This document shows positions 9,938 through 35,522 of a DNA stretch of 38,197 bases, in pieces. This DNA comes from Haloplasma contractile (GTDB lineage Bacteria > Bacillota_I > Bacilli_A > Haloplasmatales > Haloplasmataceae): assembly GCA_016841945.1 (NCBI GenBank), contig JAENYC010000034.1, forward strand, positions 1-38,197, in the 5' to 3' direction. Every line of letters begins with the position of its first letter. Position 1 is the stretch's first letter. The position numbers and the translations under genes were made by a program. The notes below the pieces were generated by a model. The model was not told where the DNA came from, made no database searches, and saw only the letters and a list, made by a program, of their open reading frames with translations.

Positions 9938-10791
9938 TATAATTCCACCACTCTCATGAAGGTGCATGAAATAATAGAGTATCCACCGACTGACGATTCT
10001 TCATTTGCTTCGATTAATTTCATATTCCAATCAGTTGTTTTTACTCCTAATCGATACACTTCAATGTTAAAAAACGGATAAGGATTAGCGTAGAAAGTAT
10101 CAGAAGGCGGTGTTGTTGCAATCAGGCTATCTGATAGATATATCCTGTTCAGTAACATTTGAGCAACAGTGTCATCGCGTCTTGCATGAACTGTAAGTGA
10201 TAGTGTTCCTACTTCATATTTTTCAACAATACCAGGTATGTTTTTATCTTCTATTGTTTTAGGTTCCGATTCAACTCTGAATGAAGTTGAGTGATTGAGT
10301 ACTCCTTTGAGTTCTATATCATCAACATAGAACCTAAAATCATTACCATACATCGATTGATTAGAATGAGAGATAGAACCTGTCACAGCGATAATAGAAT
10401 ATAACTGTCCGTTTGAGGGGTCAGCATTTTGGACAGGGAATGGTGAATTGAAAGTAATAATATATCGATACTCTGTATTGTCCTGCAGGGAACCATTTAG
10501 AGACGATATGAGCGTATCTAAGTCGTCATAGATGTTTATGTCAACTGGAACATAGAACTCTAGAGAGAATGCAAAGGATGATGAGAAAAGGTCCTTAAGT
10601 GCCACTATCTCACCAGGTTGTGTTCTAAATATTCCCGTCACTTTATCCCGAGACAATATATTACTCATTTGTTTTTCAATTGTCATATCTTTATCGATAT
10701 CAACAAACTCACCGGCATTGTTATCAACCCAAATTTTATACTTTTCGTCCAGGTGTGATTTGATATCAATTGCTATATCGGTTTTTATCAT
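9937..10791 (-). CDS. Tail protein, intact copy
   Basis: 284 residues. It is the only major-tail-protein candidate in the window: beta-rich, with paired strands (GTLSLTVHARRDD, FRFYVDDIELKGVL). It follows the gp10-like gene with a 4-nt overlap (ATGA). The coding sequence for residues 1-115 lies in the 1377-bp duplication, so the same N-terminus also starts the chimeric ORF at 11419-12168. It may be a tail tube, tail terminator or collar protein. A definite family was not recognised. Confidence 0.6.
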   Translation of the reverse strand: MIKTDIAIDIKSHLDEKYKIWVDNNAGEFVDIDKDMTIEKQMSNILSRDKVTGIFRTQPGEIVALKDLFSSSFAFSLEFYVPVDINIYDDLDTLISSLNGSLQDNTEYRYIITFNSPFPVQNADPSNGQLYSIIAVTGSISHSNQSMYGNDFRFYVDDIELKGVLNHSTSFRVESEPKTIEDKNIPGIVEKYEVGTLSLTVHARRDDTVAQMLLNRIYLSDSLIATTPPSDTFYANPYPFFNIEVYRLGVKTTDWNMKLIEANEESSVGGYSIISCTFMRVVEL

Positions 10792-11078
10792 TCGATTCTA
10801 CCTCCTGTCATATTAGCTATCTCTTGTGCTGCATCATTAGCTGCACGAGTAGCCCAACCCTGATTAGGATTTTGTTTTCCATTCCAGCGTTCATGTATCC
10901 AGGGAAGTGTTGTATATGGACCATACGGCGCAAGTGGCCCACCCATTATGATTCCCATCGATGTTGGACTAAATTGTTTTTTTACTAAACCTCTATCGTG
11001 GAGATTACCTGTGTCGACTGGCGAATAACTATACATGTACTTATGAAGAATGTTAGTCATCTGAAATAGTGTTATCAT
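10788..11078 (-). CDS. HK97 gp10-like head-tail joining protein, copy A
   Basis: 96 residues from the ATG at 11078, which has GGTGTGAT upstream; the frame is open to 11108. SYSPVDTGNLHDRG near the N-terminus and PWIHERWNGKQNPNQGWATR toward the end match the HK97-gp10/minor capsid-type proteins that act at the head-tail interface. It is identical in protein sequence to the copy at 12165-12455. Confidence 0.65.
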   Translation of the reverse strand: MITLFQMTNILHKYMYSYSPVDTGNLHDRGLVKKQFSPTSMGIIMGGPLAPYGPYTTLPWIHERWNGKQNPNQGWATRAANDAAQEIANMTGGRIE

Positions 11079-11082
11079 ACTA

Positions 11083-11409
11083 TCACACCAGGTCCAGAAT
11101 ATATTCAACTGACCAGCTGTTTTTCAATAGAGTTAACTGCTTATCGTTGACTTTTTTTGTTATGTTAGCAACTAATAAAGGCTTTGACATTGTTTCTAGT
11201 TGAATCTTATCGCCATAAACAAAATTAAGCTCCTCACGAGTCTTGATACTCTGAGAAGCTGTTACAGTCTTAAATCCTTCCGTCGGGTCATTAACTACAA
11301 ATCTACGACTATCTATTTGCTCATATTTGAATTCCTTCACTGAGTTGGTTCTAATGAGTTTAGCATCGCCAAATTCTTTTGAATTATTATCATTAAGTTG
11401 TAGAATCAT
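11083..11409 (-). CDS. Head-closure-like protein, copy A
   Basis: 108 residues from the ATG at 11409, six nt after AGGTG; GTG/ATG codons at 11418 and 11415 are too close to that site. Small beta-rich protein (GDKIQLETMSKPLLVANITK) of the size and position of head-closure or neck proteins. It is identical to copy B at 12460-12786. The family is inferred from gene order only. Confidence 0.55.
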   Translation of the reverse strand: MILQLNDNNSKEFGDAKLIRTNSVKEFKYEQIDSRRFVVNDPTEGFKTVTASQSIKTREELNFVYGDKIQLETMSKPLLVANITKKVNDKQLTLLKNSWSVEYILDLV

Positions 11410-11418
11410 TGTCATCAC

Positions 11419-12168
11419 CTACCAATTACGTGTTGGATCAAAGAGTTCTATATAATCACGATTGTAATTAAGATCCTGATCACTCATAGTACGACGTAAG
11501 AATCCTAGATTTTTTAAAATATCAATTGTCGCTGGACTCATACGCATCTTTTGCCACTGGACATAATCGAATTGACCATCCGGCAACATTTGTGCTAAGT
11601 CACCGTTTGATAATACGTATAGTGCCTGTTCACCTAATGCACGTTTGAAATCTTCTTGCCATTCTTCGTTTTGTTCTAGATATATATCCACTTCACTACG
11701 CTTCATGAAATTCACGCTATTTGTAATCACAAAGTCATATACACGATAAGATAATTGTTTTAAAAAAATCTCAGCGATATTTGATGCATTGTTCTTAACT
11801 TTTAGAATAGAGCGGACATCAGAATTGAAAGTAATAATATATCGATACTCTGTATTGTCCTGCAGGGAACCATTTAGAGACGATATGAGCGTATCTAAGT
11901 CGTCATAGATGTTTATGTCAACTGGAACATAGAACTCTAGAGAGAATGCAAAGGATGATGAGAAAAGGTCCTTAAGTGCCACTATCTCACCAGGTTGTGT
12001 TCTAAATATTCCCGTCACTTTATCCCGAGACAATATATTACTCATTTGTTTTTCAATTGTCATATCTTTATCGATATCAACAAACTCACCGGCATTGTTA
12101 TCAACCCAAATTTTATACTTTTCGTCCAGGTGTGATTTGATATCAATTGCTATATCGGTTTTTATCAT
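11419..12168 (-). CDS. Chimeric ORF: tail protein N-terminus fused to connector C-terminus
   Basis: 249 residues created by the tandem duplication. Residues 1-115 equal the N-terminus of the tail protein (9937-10791), and the rest equals the connector (12796-13242) from DVRSILKVKNN to the end. The join lies at 11821/11822 and happens to keep the frame. It has the normal start and ribosome binding site of the tail gene. It could produce a dead or dominant-negative protein, or be a by-product of an assembly error. Confidence 0.85.
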   Translation of the reverse strand: MIKTDIAIDIKSHLDEKYKIWVDNNAGEFVDIDKDMTIEKQMSNILSRDKVTGIFRTQPGEIVALKDLFSSSFAFSLEFYVPVDINIYDDLDTLISSLNGSLQDNTEYRYIITFNSDVRSILKVKNNASNIAEIFLKQLSYRVYDFVITNSVNFMKRSEVDIYLEQNEEWQEDFKRALGEQALYVLSNGDLAQMLPDGQFDYVQWQKMRMSPATIDILKNLGFLRRTMSDQDLNYNRDYIELFDPTRNW

Positions 12169-12455
12169 TCGATTCTACCTCCTGTCATATTAGCTATCTC
12201 TTGTGCTGCATCATTAGCTGCACGAGTAGCCCAACCCTGATTAGGATTTTGTTTTCCATTCCAGCGTTCATGTATCCAGGGAAGTGTTGTATATGGACCA
12301 TACGGCGCAAGTGGCCCACCCATTATGATTCCCATCGATGTTGGACTAAATTGTTTTTTTACTAAACCTCTATCGTGGAGATTACCTGTGTCGACTGGCG
12401 AATAACTATACATGTACTTATGAAGAATGTTAGTCATCTGAAATAGTGTTATCAT
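12165..12455 (-). CDS. HK97 gp10-like head-tail joining protein, copy B
   Basis: Identical product to 10788-11078, with the same start context shifted by 1377 bp. Its stop overlaps the ATG of the chimeric ORF as copy A overlaps the real tail gene. Only one copy is needed for a normal virion, so this one or copy A is free to diverge. Confidence 0.65.
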   Translation of the reverse strand: MITLFQMTNILHKYMYSYSPVDTGNLHDRGLVKKQFSPTSMGIIMGGPLAPYGPYTTLPWIHERWNGKQNPNQGWATRAANDAAQEIANMTGGRIE

Positions 12456-12459
12456 ACTA

Positions 12460-12786
12460 TCACACCAGGTCCAGAATATATTCAACTGACCAGCTGTTTT
12501 TCAATAGAGTTAACTGCTTATCGTTGACTTTTTTTGTTATGTTAGCAACTAATAAAGGCTTTGACATTGTTTCTAGTTGAATCTTATCGCCATAAACAAA
12601 ATTAAGCTCCTCACGAGTCTTGATACTCTGAGAAGCTGTTACAGTCTTAAATCCTTCCGTCGGGTCATTAACTACAAATCTACGACTATCTATTTGCTCA
12701 TATTTGAATTCCTTCACTGAGTTGGTTCTAATGAGTTTAGCATCGCCAAATTCTTTTGAATTATTATCATTAAGTTGTAGAATCAT
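12460..12786 (-). CDS. Head-closure-like protein, copy B
   Basis: Identical product to 11083-11409, with the same AGGTG-spaced start. It follows the intact connector gene directly, so this copy keeps the ancestral position downstream of the connector. Confidence 0.55.
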   Translation of the reverse strand: MILQLNDNNSKEFGDAKLIRTNSVKEFKYEQIDSRRFVVNDPTEGFKTVTASQSIKTREELNFVYGDKIQLETMSKPLLVANITKKVNDKQLTLLKNSWSVEYILDLV

Positions 12787-12795
12787 TGTCATCAC

Positions 12796-13242
12796 CTACC
12801 AATTACGTGTTGGATCAAAGAGTTCTATATAATCACGATTGTAATTAAGATCCTGATCACTCATAGTACGACGTAAGAATCCTAGATTTTTTAAAATATC
12901 AATTGTCGCTGGACTCATACGCATCTTTTGCCACTGGACATAATCGAATTGACCATCCGGCAACATTTGTGCTAAGTCACCGTTTGATAATACGTATAGT
13001 GCCTGTTCACCTAATGCACGTTTGAAATCTTCTTGCCATTCTTCGTTTTGTTCTAGATATATATCCACTTCACTACGCTTCATGAAATTCACGCTATTTG
13101 TAATCACAAAGTCATATACACGATAAGATAATTGTTTTAAAAAAATCTCAGCGATATTTGATGCATTGTTCTTAACTTTTAGAATAGAGCGGACATCACA
13201 TGCCCGCTCATTAATCATATAATCATTGTCGATGATAATCAT
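12796..13242 (-). CDS. Head-tail connector-like protein, intact copy
   Basis: 148 residues; the ATG at 13242 follows AGGTG with a 5-nt gap. Mostly helical (NNASNIAEIFLKQLSYRVYD, EEWQEDFKRALGEQALYVL), with a C-terminal tail ending NRDYIELFDPTRNW. It takes the place of the adaptor/connector protein between the head genes and head-closure. Its first 14 residues lie outside the duplication; the rest recurs in the chimera. Confidence 0.55.
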   Translation of the reverse strand: MIIIDNDYMINERACDVRSILKVKNNASNIAEIFLKQLSYRVYDFVITNSVNFMKRSEVDIYLEQNEEWQEDFKRALGEQALYVLSNGDLAQMLPDGQFDYVQWQKMRMSPATIDILKNLGFLRRTMSDQDLNYNRDYIELFDPTRNW

Positions 13243-14520: not shown

Positions 14521-15111
14521 TTAATTTTGTTCTTGATAGTAAGAAGAAACTGAATCATATAAGTTATCAGGTTCAGTCTTTTTAGGCGGTTCACCCTTGG
14601 GTGGGTTAGAACCAACCTTAAAACCAAACGGACCTGATTTTGGTTCTTGCTTATCCGGAACAAACAAAAAAGACTTCGATTCTTTCAAAGTCTTTAACTG
14701 GTCATCTAGACCATCGGTTACATTACCGTTATCGATTTTTAACTTACTCTTGTCAATTAATCCTGACACAATATCAACATCATGCACTTTTCCAGTAAGA
14801 GCAAGTTTTACTGCTGCATTAGTTGATTGTTCTTTAAGCTGAGTTTGAAGTGCTTGTTCTTTCTTCTCATATTCAGCTTTTAGACTTGCTATCTGCTCAG
14901 TTAGTTCTTCTTGAGTTTTAGCATTCTTTGTAAGTTTTTGAACCTCTGCTTGATATTCTTTAGCTAATTTATCAGCTTCATTCTTAGCTGTATTCACTTC
15001 ATCAAAACGAGCTTTAGGAATGAACCCTTTCAGTTCTTCAGCTGATGCCTCAGCTATCTTTGTTGCAGTCTCTTCATCGAGACCTAGTTTGATTAAATCT
15101 TCTTTTTTCAT
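14521..15111 (-). CDS. Capsid scaffolding protein (GP20-like)
   Basis: 196 residues. It starts MKKEDLIKLGLDEETATKIA and continues with PKARFDEVN, then a long coiled coil (about 40-105), then a C-terminal region rich in Lys/Pro. This is the phage GP20/scaffold pattern of Gram-positive phages. It assists procapsid assembly around the portal and is absent from the mature head. A 108-nt gap upstream, which holds two short hairpins but no clear promoter, separates it from the inserted lipoprotein gene. Confidence 0.8.
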   Translation of the reverse strand: MKKEDLIKLGLDEETATKIAEASAEELKGFIPKARFDEVNTAKNEADKLAKEYQAEVQKLTKNAKTQEELTEQIASLKAEYEKKEQALQTQLKEQSTNAAVKLALTGKVHDVDIVSGLIDKSKLKIDNGNVTDGLDDQLKTLKESKSFLFVPDKQEPKSGPFGFKVGSNPPKGEPPKKTEPDNLYDSVSSYYQEQN

Positions 15112-15219
15112 GATTGTATTTCTCCTTTTTCAAATTACGCTTTTTATCGTGGGTGTCGTCCACGGATTTGTCTTGTTCTTTTACGCCTTCAATACCAAAA
15201 AGGCGATGTATACTATCTA

Positions 15220-32825: not shown

Positions 32826-32940
32826 TTTCTTTCACCTCGTTTAATTTATTGAAACTCTTTTTTACTCTACTTAAATACATTTCAGCTCTATTTAATATAA
32901 ATTGCGCCTTAAATAGCAGCCGCTTTAATTCTTCATTCAC
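32815..32940 (-). CDS. Small helical protein, 41 aa
   Basis: GTG at 32940 overlaps the TGA of the preceding gene (GTGA) with GGTGAT upstream. Basic helix (NEELKRLLFKAQFILNRAEM). The end overlaps the next gene by 11 nt. Coupling and length support a real small gene; function unknown. Confidence 0.5.
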   Translation of the reverse strand: MNEELKRLLFKAQFILNRAEMYLSRVKKSFNKLNEVKENES

Positions 32941-33242
32941 ACTATCACCGGGCCTAAGACATTAGCATAATATAATTGCTCACGATAAGGACCGATGATT
33001 TTTATTTTGTAAGCCTTATGTAATCGATGAGTTTTTCGTTTATAATAAGTAGTTTCTTCTTTAAAAACTATAAACGCAGGTCCTTTTAAATATAGAGATT
33101 TCAACTCACCATCAAATGGATTGTATTCCTCGCTTATTCGCTTGCAATTTCTCAACAGTATATTTCTTACGTCTTCACGCGCTTTAAATCGTTTATTGTT
33201 AACGACACTTCTTACATCTTTGATAACTTCTGAGATATTCAT
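32937..33242 (-). CDS. Hypothetical basic protein, 101 aa
   Basis: Basic alpha/beta protein (VVNNKRFKAREDVRNILLRN, AFIVFKEETTYYKRKTHRLH). No family was recognised. Overlaps the neighbours on both sides by about 4 nt. Confidence 0.55.
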   Translation of the reverse strand: MNISEVIKDVRSVVNNKRFKAREDVRNILLRNCKRISEEYNPFDGELKSLYLKGPAFIVFKEETTYYKRKTHRLHKAYKIKIIGPYREQLYYANVLGPVIV

Positions 33243-33433
33243 TTACTACCATCTTCTTTAGGAACAACTGTACATTTTTGTTTGTTTAAATCTACTAAGA
33301 CTAAAGCGATATTCTTACTACAGTTGGGGCAGAGTATAACTGCTGATGCAATTTGATTTTTATCTTTAGGCATTTCAAACTTGACTGAATTAGCTTTAGT
33401 TTCACATCCACAATCACAAATTACTTTTAACAT
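33239..33433 (-). CDS. Zinc-ribbon-like small protein, 64 aa
   Basis: Cys pairs CDCGC (residues 6-10) and CPNC (35-38) with beta-prone sequence between them. The pattern is a small zinc ribbon, probably binding nucleic acid or acting as a structural domain. The open region just upstream (33434-33585) holds no protein gene but does hold a structured small RNA on the opposite strand. Confidence 0.65.
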   Translation of the reverse strand: MLKVICDCGCETKANSVKFEMPKDKNQIASAVILCPNCSKNIALVLVDLNKQKCTVVPKEDGSK

Positions 33434-33472
33434 ATCCCGTTCACCTCACATATTTTCAAATTAGGTCGCATA

Positions 33473-33481
33473 TGATATAAT
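33473..33481 (+). promoter_or_regulatory. Extended -10 promoter of the candidate small RNA
   Basis: TGATATAAT on the + strand; a partial -35 (TTTTCA at 33453-33458) sits 17 nt upstream. The start would be near 33488, exactly at the first stem of the RNA. The direction is opposite to the early operon. Confidence 0.55.
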
Positions 33482-33487
33482 GTGAAT

Positions 33488-33587
33488 AAGTACGACAAAA
33501 GAGCGTACTTGTCACTATAGAAATAGGAGCGACCAAACTCTATTTCAATTTTCTAAAAGAATCCTACTGCCAATAGGGTTCTTTTTT
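33488..33587 (+). ncRNA. Candidate structured small RNA, about 100 nt
   Basis: Three consecutive stem-loops. First: AAGTACG (33488-33494) / CGTACTT (33504-33510). Second: GAAATAG (33520-33526) / CTATTTC (33540-33546). Third: AGAATCCTA (33558-33566) / TAGGGTTCT (33574-33582), followed by T residues, a good rho-independent terminator. It begins a few nt after an extended -10 promoter. No start codon lies inside, so it is likely non-coding. It is antisense to the leftward early transcript between two protein genes and could act on it or on another target. Confidence 0.65.
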
Positions 33588-33738
33588 ATTCTTCGATTTC
33601 AATAGTTACATCCCTTCCGCTTATAGGAATAGTTTCGATATTTACAATGACTTTTTGATAATCGTTATCTTTGATTATTCTTATTTCGGCATTAGCTGGA
33701 TGTTGTGCTAGTACCTGGATCAGTTCATAGACTTTCAT
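33586..33738 (-). CDS. Small acidic protein, 50 aa
   Basis: ATG at 33738 after AAAGGAG. Product MKVYELIQVLAQHPANAEIR and following, ending in an acidic tail. Its stop touches the terminator of the opposite-strand RNA. The pattern (YELIQVLA..PANAEI) resembles short proteins that occur in phage early operons. Function unknown. Confidence 0.6.
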   Translation of the reverse strand: MKVYELIQVLAQHPANAEIRIIKDNDYQKVIVNIETIPISGRDVTIEIEE

Positions 33739-33862
33739 CCGCATTCTCCTTTCCTTTTTTTATCGATTCGTTAAGTTCTTCTAACTCTTTTTGAACTTTA
33801 TGTTCCTGAATGATCGTAACGATCAGGAATGTAGCGACGAATATAATTAGTATTGCTTTCAT
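33725..33862 (-). CDS. Small single-TM peptide, 45 aa
   Basis: MKAILIIFVATFLIVTIIQE is a membrane helix, followed by a charged helix (KVQKELEELNESIKKGKENA). It overlaps the 43-aa ORF by 65 nt and the 50-aa ORF by 14 nt in other frames. The ribosome binding site is weak. Short hydrophobic peptides next to a small RNA are typical of type I toxin-antitoxin loci; that is only a possibility here. Confidence 0.45.
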   Translation of the reverse strand: MKAILIIFVATFLIVTIIQEHKVQKELEELNESIKKGKENADESL

Positions 33863-33929
33863 GCTTCTTAGATTTCCTTTCTTTCCGGAGCTTGTCTTTC
33901 TGATGTTTACGTGATTTATATTTAGACAT
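33798..33929 (-). CDS. Small very basic peptide, 43 aa
   Basis: The ATG overlaps the antirepressor stop (TGATG), so translation is coupled. MSKYKSRKHQKDKLRKERKS has about half its first 23 residues Lys/Arg. It may bind nucleic acid. Its last third overlaps the 45-aa TM ORF in another frame. Confidence 0.5.
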   Translation of the reverse strand: MSKYKSRKHQKDKLRKERKSKKHESNTNYIRRYIPDRYDHSGT

Positions 33930-34519
33930 CAGGACACCAACTTTCGAATATAATTAAGACCTTTTTGAAAAACAAGCGTCTTAATGTTGATATGTGTTGT
34001 TCCTTCTTTATCATTCCATTTTTGTTCAATAGTTCTAAAGTATCCTGCGTCTATATACTTTTGATACGGTTGATTGTTTTGCATAAGTATTCCTTTTTGA
34101 CGAAGTAGTTCGAATAGTTTATTTCTATTTTCAATGACAGTTTGCGCAACAATCAACGCCTTCGCCATTAGTTCTGAATCTGATAGGTTTTCTTGATTGG
34201 CTATGTAACCACCATTATCGTGAATACTTGGGATGACTTCATCAAATATCCAACTTTCAAACTTTTCACCTATTGATAATTGACACTTGGCAATTAATCT
34301 ATAAACATCACCACGACTGATAACTAACATTTCTTGACTACCACCATTTGTAGGGATGGTCTGTTTTAGAACACCCTTGCAATGTTCTCTAACCGCCTTA
34401 TGAGGAATTGAATATCCTAATATTTTTGCAACATCACTCCCTACAAAATAAGGTTTGTTATCAATTAAGATTGTCCTTACTTCCCCAAACTGATTATTTT
34501 TAAACACTTGCAGTTCCAT
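33929..34519 (-). CDS. Phage antirepressor (Bro-N plus ANT/KilA-C-like)
   Basis: 196 residues. The N-terminal Bro-N domain (KNNQFGEVRTILIDNKPYFV, GSDVAKILGYSIPHKAVREH) and the C-terminal KilA-C/ANT-like part (LFELLRQKGILMQNNQPYQK, FRTIEQKWNDKEG) are both visible. Such proteins inactivate repressors and favour induction. It is an early gene directly downstream of the excisionase-like gene, which fits. Confidence 0.85.
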   Translation of the reverse strand: MELQVFKNNQFGEVRTILIDNKPYFVGSDVAKILGYSIPHKAVREHCKGVLKQTIPTNGGSQEMLVISRGDVYRLIAKCQLSIGEKFESWIFDEVIPSIHDNGGYIANQENLSDSELMAKALIVAQTVIENRNKLFELLRQKGILMQNNQPYQKYIDAGYFRTIEQKWNDKEGTTHINIKTLVFQKGLNYIRKLVS

Positions 34520-34958: not shown

Positions 34959-34990
34959 TTTTCTCACCTCCTTATTAGTATTACACATTT

Positions 34991-35120
34991 TGTGTCAATT
35001 ATGTCTCACTACGTGACAATTTTATTATATTTCTTTTTGTCTCAATTGTCAACATCAAAATCGAATTTTCTTCTTTTTGTGACATTGTCTAAATATACTT
35101 TATTTTCTCATACTGTGACA
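34991..35120. promoter_or_regulatory. Array of TGTGACA-type operators
   Basis: Repeated half-sites lie between the divergent regulators: TGTGTCA (34991-34997), TGTCTCA (35002-35008), CGTGACA (35012-35018), TGTCTCA (35038-35044), TGTGACA (35078-35084) and TGTGACA (35114-35120). The pair at 35002-35018 forms an inverted repeat over the start point of the leftward promoter. These are the likely binding sites of the CI-like and Cro-like proteins. Confidence 0.65.
35024..35052 (-). promoter_or_regulatory. Consensus leftward early promoter
   Basis: TTGACA (35052-35047) and TATAAT (35029-35024) with exactly 17 nt between, both perfect matches on the - strand. The start point would be near 35017, giving a leader of about 59 nt before the Cro-like ATG. 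Operator sites lie on and around it, so repressor binding would block it. Confidence 0.85.
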
Positions 35121-35165
35121 TTACAATTATATATATAGTCAAAATTTATAAAAAAGGTGGGAAAG

Positions 35166-35522
35166 ATGCTAAAACTTAAAGAATTACGTAAAATGAAGGG
35201 GCTAACCCAACAACAAGTAGCAGATAAATTAAATATAGGTCGAAGTACATATGCACAATATGAAAGTAATAGTAGAGAACCTGATTATGAAACTTTGATA
35301 AATTTAGCTAATTTTTATGAAGTAACTGTTGATTATTTATTGGGAAATGAGTATGTAACAAAAGAGAATGAAGAAAATTATGATTTTGAAAAAACTAAAA
35401 ATATGGTAAAAAAAGAATTTGGAGATAGAGGCGTTCTTTTTTACGATATTAAAAAAATGACTCCTGAAGAGTTGAAAGTTTTGAGAGCAGTTTTGGATGC
35501 GTTAGAAGGTGACAAAGAATAA
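35166..35522 (+). CDS. CI-like XRE repressor
   Basis: 118 residues from the ATG at 35166, five nt after AAAGGTGG; the frame is open to the GTG at 35157. N-terminal XRE helix-turn-helix (KGLTQQQVADKLNIGRSTYA, QYESNSREPDYETLINLANF, then EVTVDYLLGN). A charged C-terminal extension (VKKEFGDRGVLFYDIKKMTP) without a LexA-type protease domain follows, as in repressors removed by an ImmA-type protease. It keeps the lysogenic state. Confidence 0.88.
   Translation: MLKLKELRKMKGLTQQQVADKLNIGRSTYAQYESNSREPDYETLINLANFYEVTVDYLLGNEYVTKENEENYDFEKTKNMVKKEFGDRGVLFYDIKKMTPEELKVLRAVLDALEGDKE

What the first reader, a model, noticed from the sequence alone, without database searches (positions are those of the whole stretch)
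33473..33588. Candidate phage small RNA opposite to the early operon
An extended -10 promoter, three clean stem-loops and a strong terminator occupy the only sizeable non-coding gap of the early region, on the strand opposite to the early transcript. No family known to me matches. It could act as an antisense regulator of the early mRNA (stability, premature termination), or as an sRNA made from the prophage that controls host or superinfecting phage genes.
Basis: partly seen in the sequence, partly recalled or inferred. Interest (0 to 1): 0.8.

Follow-up and report, generated by a model that had tools for sequence, protein, structure and literature searches.

The report
Antisense small RNA in prophage early operon
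A prophage in a Haloplasma-type bacterium carries a small, well-formed RNA gene on the strand opposite to its early lytic genes; two related prophages keep it in the same place, so it is probably a real antisense brake on those genes, comparable to lambda OOP or P22 sar RNA.

Summary
On the + strand at 33471-33587 lie a perfect extended -10 (TATGATATAAT), hairpin H1 (33488-33510), hairpin H2 (33520-33546) and a 12-bp terminator. They fill the only sizeable gap of the early (- strand) operon. Shuffled windows give such a promoter-terminator unit 0.005 times on average; the window has one. No Rfam family matches significantly. Homologues occur in two other prophages of the same bacterial family (G001; G003 = Inordinaticella fortuita), at the same place in the operon. 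They share the promoter and terminator and keep all three stems through sequence changes. About 400 genomes each of the class and phylum, INPHARED and (by pattern searches) IMG/VR gave no further member.

The best reading is a constitutive cis-antisense RNA to the early mRNA between the antirepressor region and the recombination genes. It works like lambda OOP or P22 sar; homology to either was not shown. In the early mRNA this would be a loop-to-pre-Shine-Dalgarno helix competing with the antisense RNA, as in IncI-alpha repZ control. That step is a hypothesis; expression and function are untested.

The parts
33471..33481 (+). extended -10 promoter TATGATATAAT
   Evidence: sequence; identical in all three prophages; unique on the + strand of the window
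33453..33458 (+). weak -35-like hexamer TTTTCA, 17-nt spacer
   Evidence: TTTTC also kept in G003
33488..33587 (+). predicted small RNA, about 100 nt, from the predicted start to the terminator U-run
   Evidence: no convincing ORF
33488..33510 (+). hairpin H1, AAGUACG/CGUACUU, loop ACAAAAGAG
   Evidence: stem kept in G001 and G003 with changed pairs
33520..33546 (+). hairpin H2, GAAAUAG(G)AG/CUCUAUUUC, loop CGACCAAA (33530-33537), variable between prophages
   Evidence: in G001 the stem sequence is replaced (UUGGG/CCCAA, GUG/CAC) yet still pairs
33555..33587 (+). intrinsic terminator, 12-bp stem and U-run
   Evidence: same stem in G001, pairs changed in G003
33461..33469 (+). element TTAGGTCGC in the promoter spacer, reverse complement of the H2 loop (GCGACCAAA, 33529-33537) with one mismatch; on the early mRNA it reads GCGACCUAA, shortly upstream of the Shine-Dalgarno sequence
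   Evidence: supported in the window and G003, not in G001
33441..33447 (-). Shine-Dalgarno sequence GAGGUGA of the 64-aa early gene; possible sequestering stem 33480-33486 with 33445-33451
   Evidence: sequestration only weakly supported (combined p 0.02)
33239..33433 (-). 64-aa early gene downstream of the antisense region on the early mRNA; start codon at 33433
   Evidence: no family match
32937..33242 (-). 101-aa early gene conserved near the RNA gene in all three prophages
33586..33744 (-). 52-aa early ORF whose stop codon abuts the RNA's terminator
   Evidence: an upstream ORF also ends at the terminator in G001 and G003
33929..34519 (-). antirepressor, BRO-N plus KilAC/ANT domains, upstream in the early operon

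Best explanation
A prophage gene for a cis-encoded antisense small RNA of about 100 nt. Shown by sequence: a strong extended -10 promoter and a terminator on the + strand, two hairpins with loops, and perfect complementarity to the early mRNA between the antirepressor-proximal ORFs and the 64-/101-aa genes, SbcC-like gene and recT. Inferred: the promoter, which has no recognisable repressor operator, fires in the lysogen. Leaked or superinfecting early mRNA is met by the RNA through the H1 and H2 loops, forming a duplex of up to about 100 bp that RNase III can cut and that separates or silences the downstream early genes. Further inference: the H2 loop is the specificity determinant, since it is the variable part, and it may block a loop-to-pre-Shine-Dalgarno helix of the mRNA.
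For: The joint promoter-terminator unit is beyond chance and the fold z-score is -4.9. From the window sequence alone, blastn finds G001 (69% identity, E 1e-10) and G003 (69%, E 2e-4). Both have the same orientation and neighbours: antirepressor upstream, the 100-113-aa homologous early gene downstream. TATGATATAAT is identical in all three while flanks diverge, and H1, H2 and the terminator stem stay paired through changed sequences. Immunity-region repeats differ between the three phages and do not clearly recur at this promoter, so it looks independent of CI. Same kind of layout as lambda OOP and P22 sar antisense RNAs (PMC5869508, PMC12197685).
Against: No transcript data. Only three members, so covariation is thin and was read with stems chosen by folding. 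In G001 the global minimum-energy fold is not the three-hairpin one. The early-mRNA strand also folds better than shuffles in G001, so part of the conservation could belong to the mRNA. The effect on early genes and RNase III cutting are inferred from OOP.
Confidence: 0.62

Rival explanations
1. IncI-alpha/IncB-like pseudoknot switch. In the early mRNA the H2-complement loop pairs with the element 11-17 nt upstream of the Shine-Dalgarno sequence of the next gene; the antisense RNA binds the same loop and prevents that pairing, changing translation of the downstream gene. (A refinement of the best explanation rather than an alternative to it.)
For: Window: 8 of 9 nt complementary; G003: 9 contiguous pairs. 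In each, about 0.07% of same-strand 16-mers of the phage pair that well with the loop. Shuffle p 0.015 and 0.001. The sequences differ between the two phages yet stay complementary. Mechanism known for repZ of ColIb-P9 (PMC8383071).
Against: G001 shows no convincing pairing (p 0.14; 30% of 16-mers do as well). Blocking the element in silico does not free the SD in any of the three, so the predicted direction of control is not supported. The pairing was noticed after looking.
Confidence: 0.2
2. A trans-acting regulatory RNA of the prophage that controls host or other phage mRNAs, with the antisense position incidental.
For: Own promoter and terminator, structured, conserved H1 loop (CAAAA kept in all three).
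Against: It sits opposite the same early intergenic region in three phages; the loop best placed as a seed (H2) is the variable part; no target evidence is at hand (host targets were not searched).
Confidence: 0.12
3. The inverted elements are binding sites of a phage regulator (repressor or Cro) that controls the + promoter, not RNA pairing.
For: G003's element TTGTGACA resembles half-sites in the window phage's immunity region.
Against: Each phage has different immunity-region repeats (window TGTCTCACTACGTGACA-type, G003 TTGAACTT, G001 TCACGTAATGTGA), and G003's own repeats do not resemble its element.
Confidence: 0.07
4. The conserved unit matters only as structure in the early mRNA (an intercistronic processing or translation domain); the + promoter is incidental.
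For: The complement strand can also form the hairpins; the mRNA strand is the better folder in G001 (core z -2.07 against -1.27).
Against: A perfect extended -10 and a + strand terminator with U-run, both conserved in all three, stay unexplained; in the window and G003 the + strand folds better than the - strand against shuffles.
Confidence: 0.1

Closest known systems
Lambda OOP RNA (pO-oop-tO)
   Same: Short RNA with its own promoter and terminator, transcribed against the early operon between an early regulatory gene and downstream early genes.
   Different: No sequence link was tested or seen; OOP overlaps the cII coding end by 52 nt (PMC5869508), whereas this RNA lies in an intergenic gap and only touches the stop of a small ORF. 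LexA control was not seen.
P22 sar RNA
   Same: Small antisense RNA of a temperate phage in an operon with an antirepressor gene.
   Different: sar pairs with ant mRNA and blocks its translation initiation (PMC12197685); here the antirepressor gene ends about 340 bp upstream on the mRNA and is not covered.
P1/P7 c4 RNA
   Same: RNA-based specificity that could differ between related phages (heteroimmunity).
   Different: c4 acts in trans on ant mRNA (PMC12197685); this RNA is encoded opposite its presumed target.
IncI-alpha/IncB Inc RNA (RNAI) and repZ/repA pseudoknot
   Same: Antisense loop complementary to an mRNA loop that can also pair with a sequence shortly upstream of the next gene's SD (window and G003).
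   Different: No translated leader within the structure; pairing not found in G001; SD release not supported by folding; not a plasmid replicon.
Opposite-strand unit after the antirepressor in Staphylococcus phage B166 (ORF09)
   Same: Same position in a cro-ant-SbcC-RecT operon, own annotated promoter on the opposite strand.
   Different: Annotated as a 46-aa ORF, not a non-coding RNA; no sequence similarity seen.

Membership tests
Phage early-operon cis-antisense RNA (OOP/sar kind) | own promoter on the strand opposite to the early operon | tested here: met
   extended -10 conserved in 3 of 3
Phage early-operon cis-antisense RNA (OOP/sar kind) | short, with intrinsic terminator, non-coding | tested here: met
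   about 100 nt, terminator, no convincing ORF
Phage early-operon cis-antisense RNA (OOP/sar kind) | transcript exists and lowers expression of the overlapping mRNA | not testable with these tools
   needs RNA-seq, northern blot or mutants
Lambda OOP RNA family | sequence or structure homology to OOP | not tested
   no direct alignment made; no significant Rfam match of any kind at this site
Lambda OOP RNA family | overlap with the coding end of an early regulator (cII) | tested here: not met
   RNA lies in the gap 33434-33585 and only touches the stop of a 52-aa ORF
P22 sar RNA | covers the ant translation start | tested here: not met
   antirepressor start at 34519, RNA at 33488-33587
IncI-alpha/IncB RNAI-pseudoknot control | mRNA loop complementary to a sequence shortly upstream of the next gene's SD, kept in relatives | tested here: inconclusive
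   met in the window and G003, not in G001
IncI-alpha/IncB RNAI-pseudoknot control | loop-to-pre-SD pairing frees a sequestered SD | tested here: not met
   blocking the element does not raise predicted SD accessibility; pseudoknots themselves were not modelled
Any Rfam family | score at or above the gathering threshold | tested here: not met
   best is STnc370 at 27.2 bits against a threshold of 54

The most novel reading that the evidence does not exclude
A temperate phage controls its early operon with a plasmid-type RNA switch: an intercistronic loop of the early mRNA pairs with a sequence shortly upstream of the next gene's ribosome-binding site, a prophage antisense RNA competes for that loop, and the loop and its partner sequence co-diverge between related phages, giving RNA-based, phage-specific immunity independent of the CI repressor.
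Probability: 0.15. Interest if true: 0.7.

Novelty: new member of a known kind. Interest (0 to 1): 0.42.

Why it matters
It would be a new antisense RNA family in prophages of the Haloplasma lineage, where a keyword search turned up no published prophage RNA regulator. It offers a compact test of whether early-operon antisense RNAs act as a second, repressor-independent brake whose specificity sits in one variable loop.

Tried and rejected
Rfam: nothing above threshold at this site. INPHARED blastn with 1.1 kb and 161 bp: no match. IMG/VR by the 101-aa protein, the SbcC-like protein, and promoter/hairpin/terminator patterns: no homologue; the pattern had the wrong spacing and was repeated correctly. 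Covariance model over 395 class genomes: only the three prophages are convincing; the next hit (G008, 36.9 bits, E 4e-4) lies beside a restriction-modification gene without this context and was set aside. The exact promoter/H1 pattern in 392 phylum genomes found only the window and G003; G001 was not among the genomes listed there. The antirepressor locus of G002 shows no comparable unit. The CI operator reading of the element was rejected. An RNA-guided DNA-targeting reading of the element was dropped: no candidate effector was noticed in the proteins examined, and the complementarity is explained equally well within the mRNA. SD release by the pseudoknot was not supported. Positional analogues in Brochothrix phage NF5 (opposite-strand extended -10 and terminator just before the SbcC gene; model score 15.5 bits, E 0.64) and Aeribacillus phage AP45 are unproven.

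Full report
What is there. The + strand of the window at 33471-33587 carries a perfect extended -10 element (TATGATATAAT, 33471-33481; the only perfect TATGNTATAAT on the + strand of the window), a weak -35 with a 17-nt spacer, two hairpins (H1 33488-33510, H2 33520-33546) and an intrinsic terminator with a 12-bp stem (33555-33585) and a U-run. The stretch folds at -31.6 kcal/mol against -16.4 +/- 3.1 for shuffles, and still better than shuffles without the terminator (z -2.6). An extended -10 followed within about 160 nt by a terminator of at least 9 bp occurs once in the window and 0.005 times per shuffled window. There is no convincing reading frame in the RNA. The unit lies in the only sizeable gap of the early operon, which runs on the - strand.

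Setting. The window is contig C37 of a 3.43-Mb genome. The early strand carries, in order, a Cro-like HTH protein, an HTH_17 protein, a BRO-N/KilAC antirepressor, small ORFs, the RNA gene on the opposite strand, a 64-aa and a 101-aa protein, an SbcC-like protein, RecT, a metallo-hydrolase and a DnaD-like replication protein.

Relatives. With the window DNA alone, blastn over 198 related genomes finds one full-length match in the same genus (G001, 69%, E 1.4e-10) and one in the same family (G003, 69%, E 1.7e-4); the other hits are short fragments. G003's contig has the same length (40,336 bases) and carries the same locus as NSKI01000020.1, Inordinaticella fortuita strain 4B, from which I take the identity; placing the lineage near Haloplasma is my own knowledge, not a tool result. 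In both relatives the antirepressor lies upstream and the homologous 100-113-aa early gene downstream, and an early ORF ends at the terminator. The extended -10 is identical in all three; H1, H2 and the terminator stem are kept through changed sequences, most strikingly H2 of G001, whose stem sequence is replaced. A covariance model of the three finds no other convincing member in 395 genomes of the class; its scores for the three themselves are by construction. INPHARED and IMG/VR gave none.

In the promoter spacer, TTAGGTCGC (33461-33469) is the reverse complement, with one mismatch, of the H2 loop region GCGACCAAA (33529-33537). In G003 the corresponding sequences are different (TTTGTGACA and TGTCACAAA) but again complementary, over 9 nt. 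Only about 0.07% of same-strand 16-mers of either phage match the loop as well as the element does; shuffle p-values are 0.015 and 0.001. In G001 there is no convincing match (p 0.14; 30% of 16-mers do as well). The element lies upstream of the predicted RNA start, so both partners are together only in the early mRNA, where the element sits 11-17 nt before the Shine-Dalgarno sequence of the next gene. That is the layout of the IncI-alpha repZ switch, in which an antisense RNA blocks a pseudoknot needed for translation (PMC8383071). But folding does not show that blocking the element raises SD accessibility as that model requires, and an SD-sequestering stem is only weakly supported (combined p 0.02). 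I keep this as a hypothesis at about 0.15-0.2. The element is not explained as a CI operator, since immunity-region repeats differ between the phages and do not match it in G003.

Most likely function. A prophage antisense RNA against the early mRNA, acting by duplex formation in the intercistronic region, as OOP and sar act on their mRNAs in lambda and P22 (PMC5869508, PMC12197685). Shown: the gene's anatomy, conservation, complementarity and position. Inferred: expression in the lysogen, duplex formation, RNase III cutting, effect on downstream genes, loop specificity.

Verdict. Probably a real, conserved small-RNA gene; a new member of a known kind, with a possible new twist that needs more relatives or mutants to decide.

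Noticed in passing
window 10445-13198: Perfect tandem duplication of 1,377 bp (copies 10445-11821 and 11822-13198, 100% identical) in the late region; recent duplication or assembly effect.
   Followed up: partly
window 15136-15200, - strand: Rfam GP20-b RNA (RF03003, 39.9 bits, threshold 36.2) just upstream of the head scaffolding gene 14521-15111.
   Followed up: no
window 33929-34519: The antirepressor is 196 aa and matches only positions 34-105 of the ANT profile, against 238 and 263 aa in the relatives; it appears to lack an internal part.
   Followed up: no
L052 (Staphylococcus phage B166) 4246-4386, - strand: Opposite-strand ORF09 with its own annotated promoter shortly after the antirepressor, at about the position of the RNA gene here.
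   Followed up: partly
L050 (Brochothrix phage NF5) 5980-5921, - strand: Extended -10 and terminator on the opposite strand just before the SbcC-like gene; possible very short antisense RNA.
   Followed up: partly
window 34980-35175; L021 13100-13400; L023 14100-14420: Repressor-region repeats differ completely between the three related prophages, suggesting different immunity types.
   Followed up: partly
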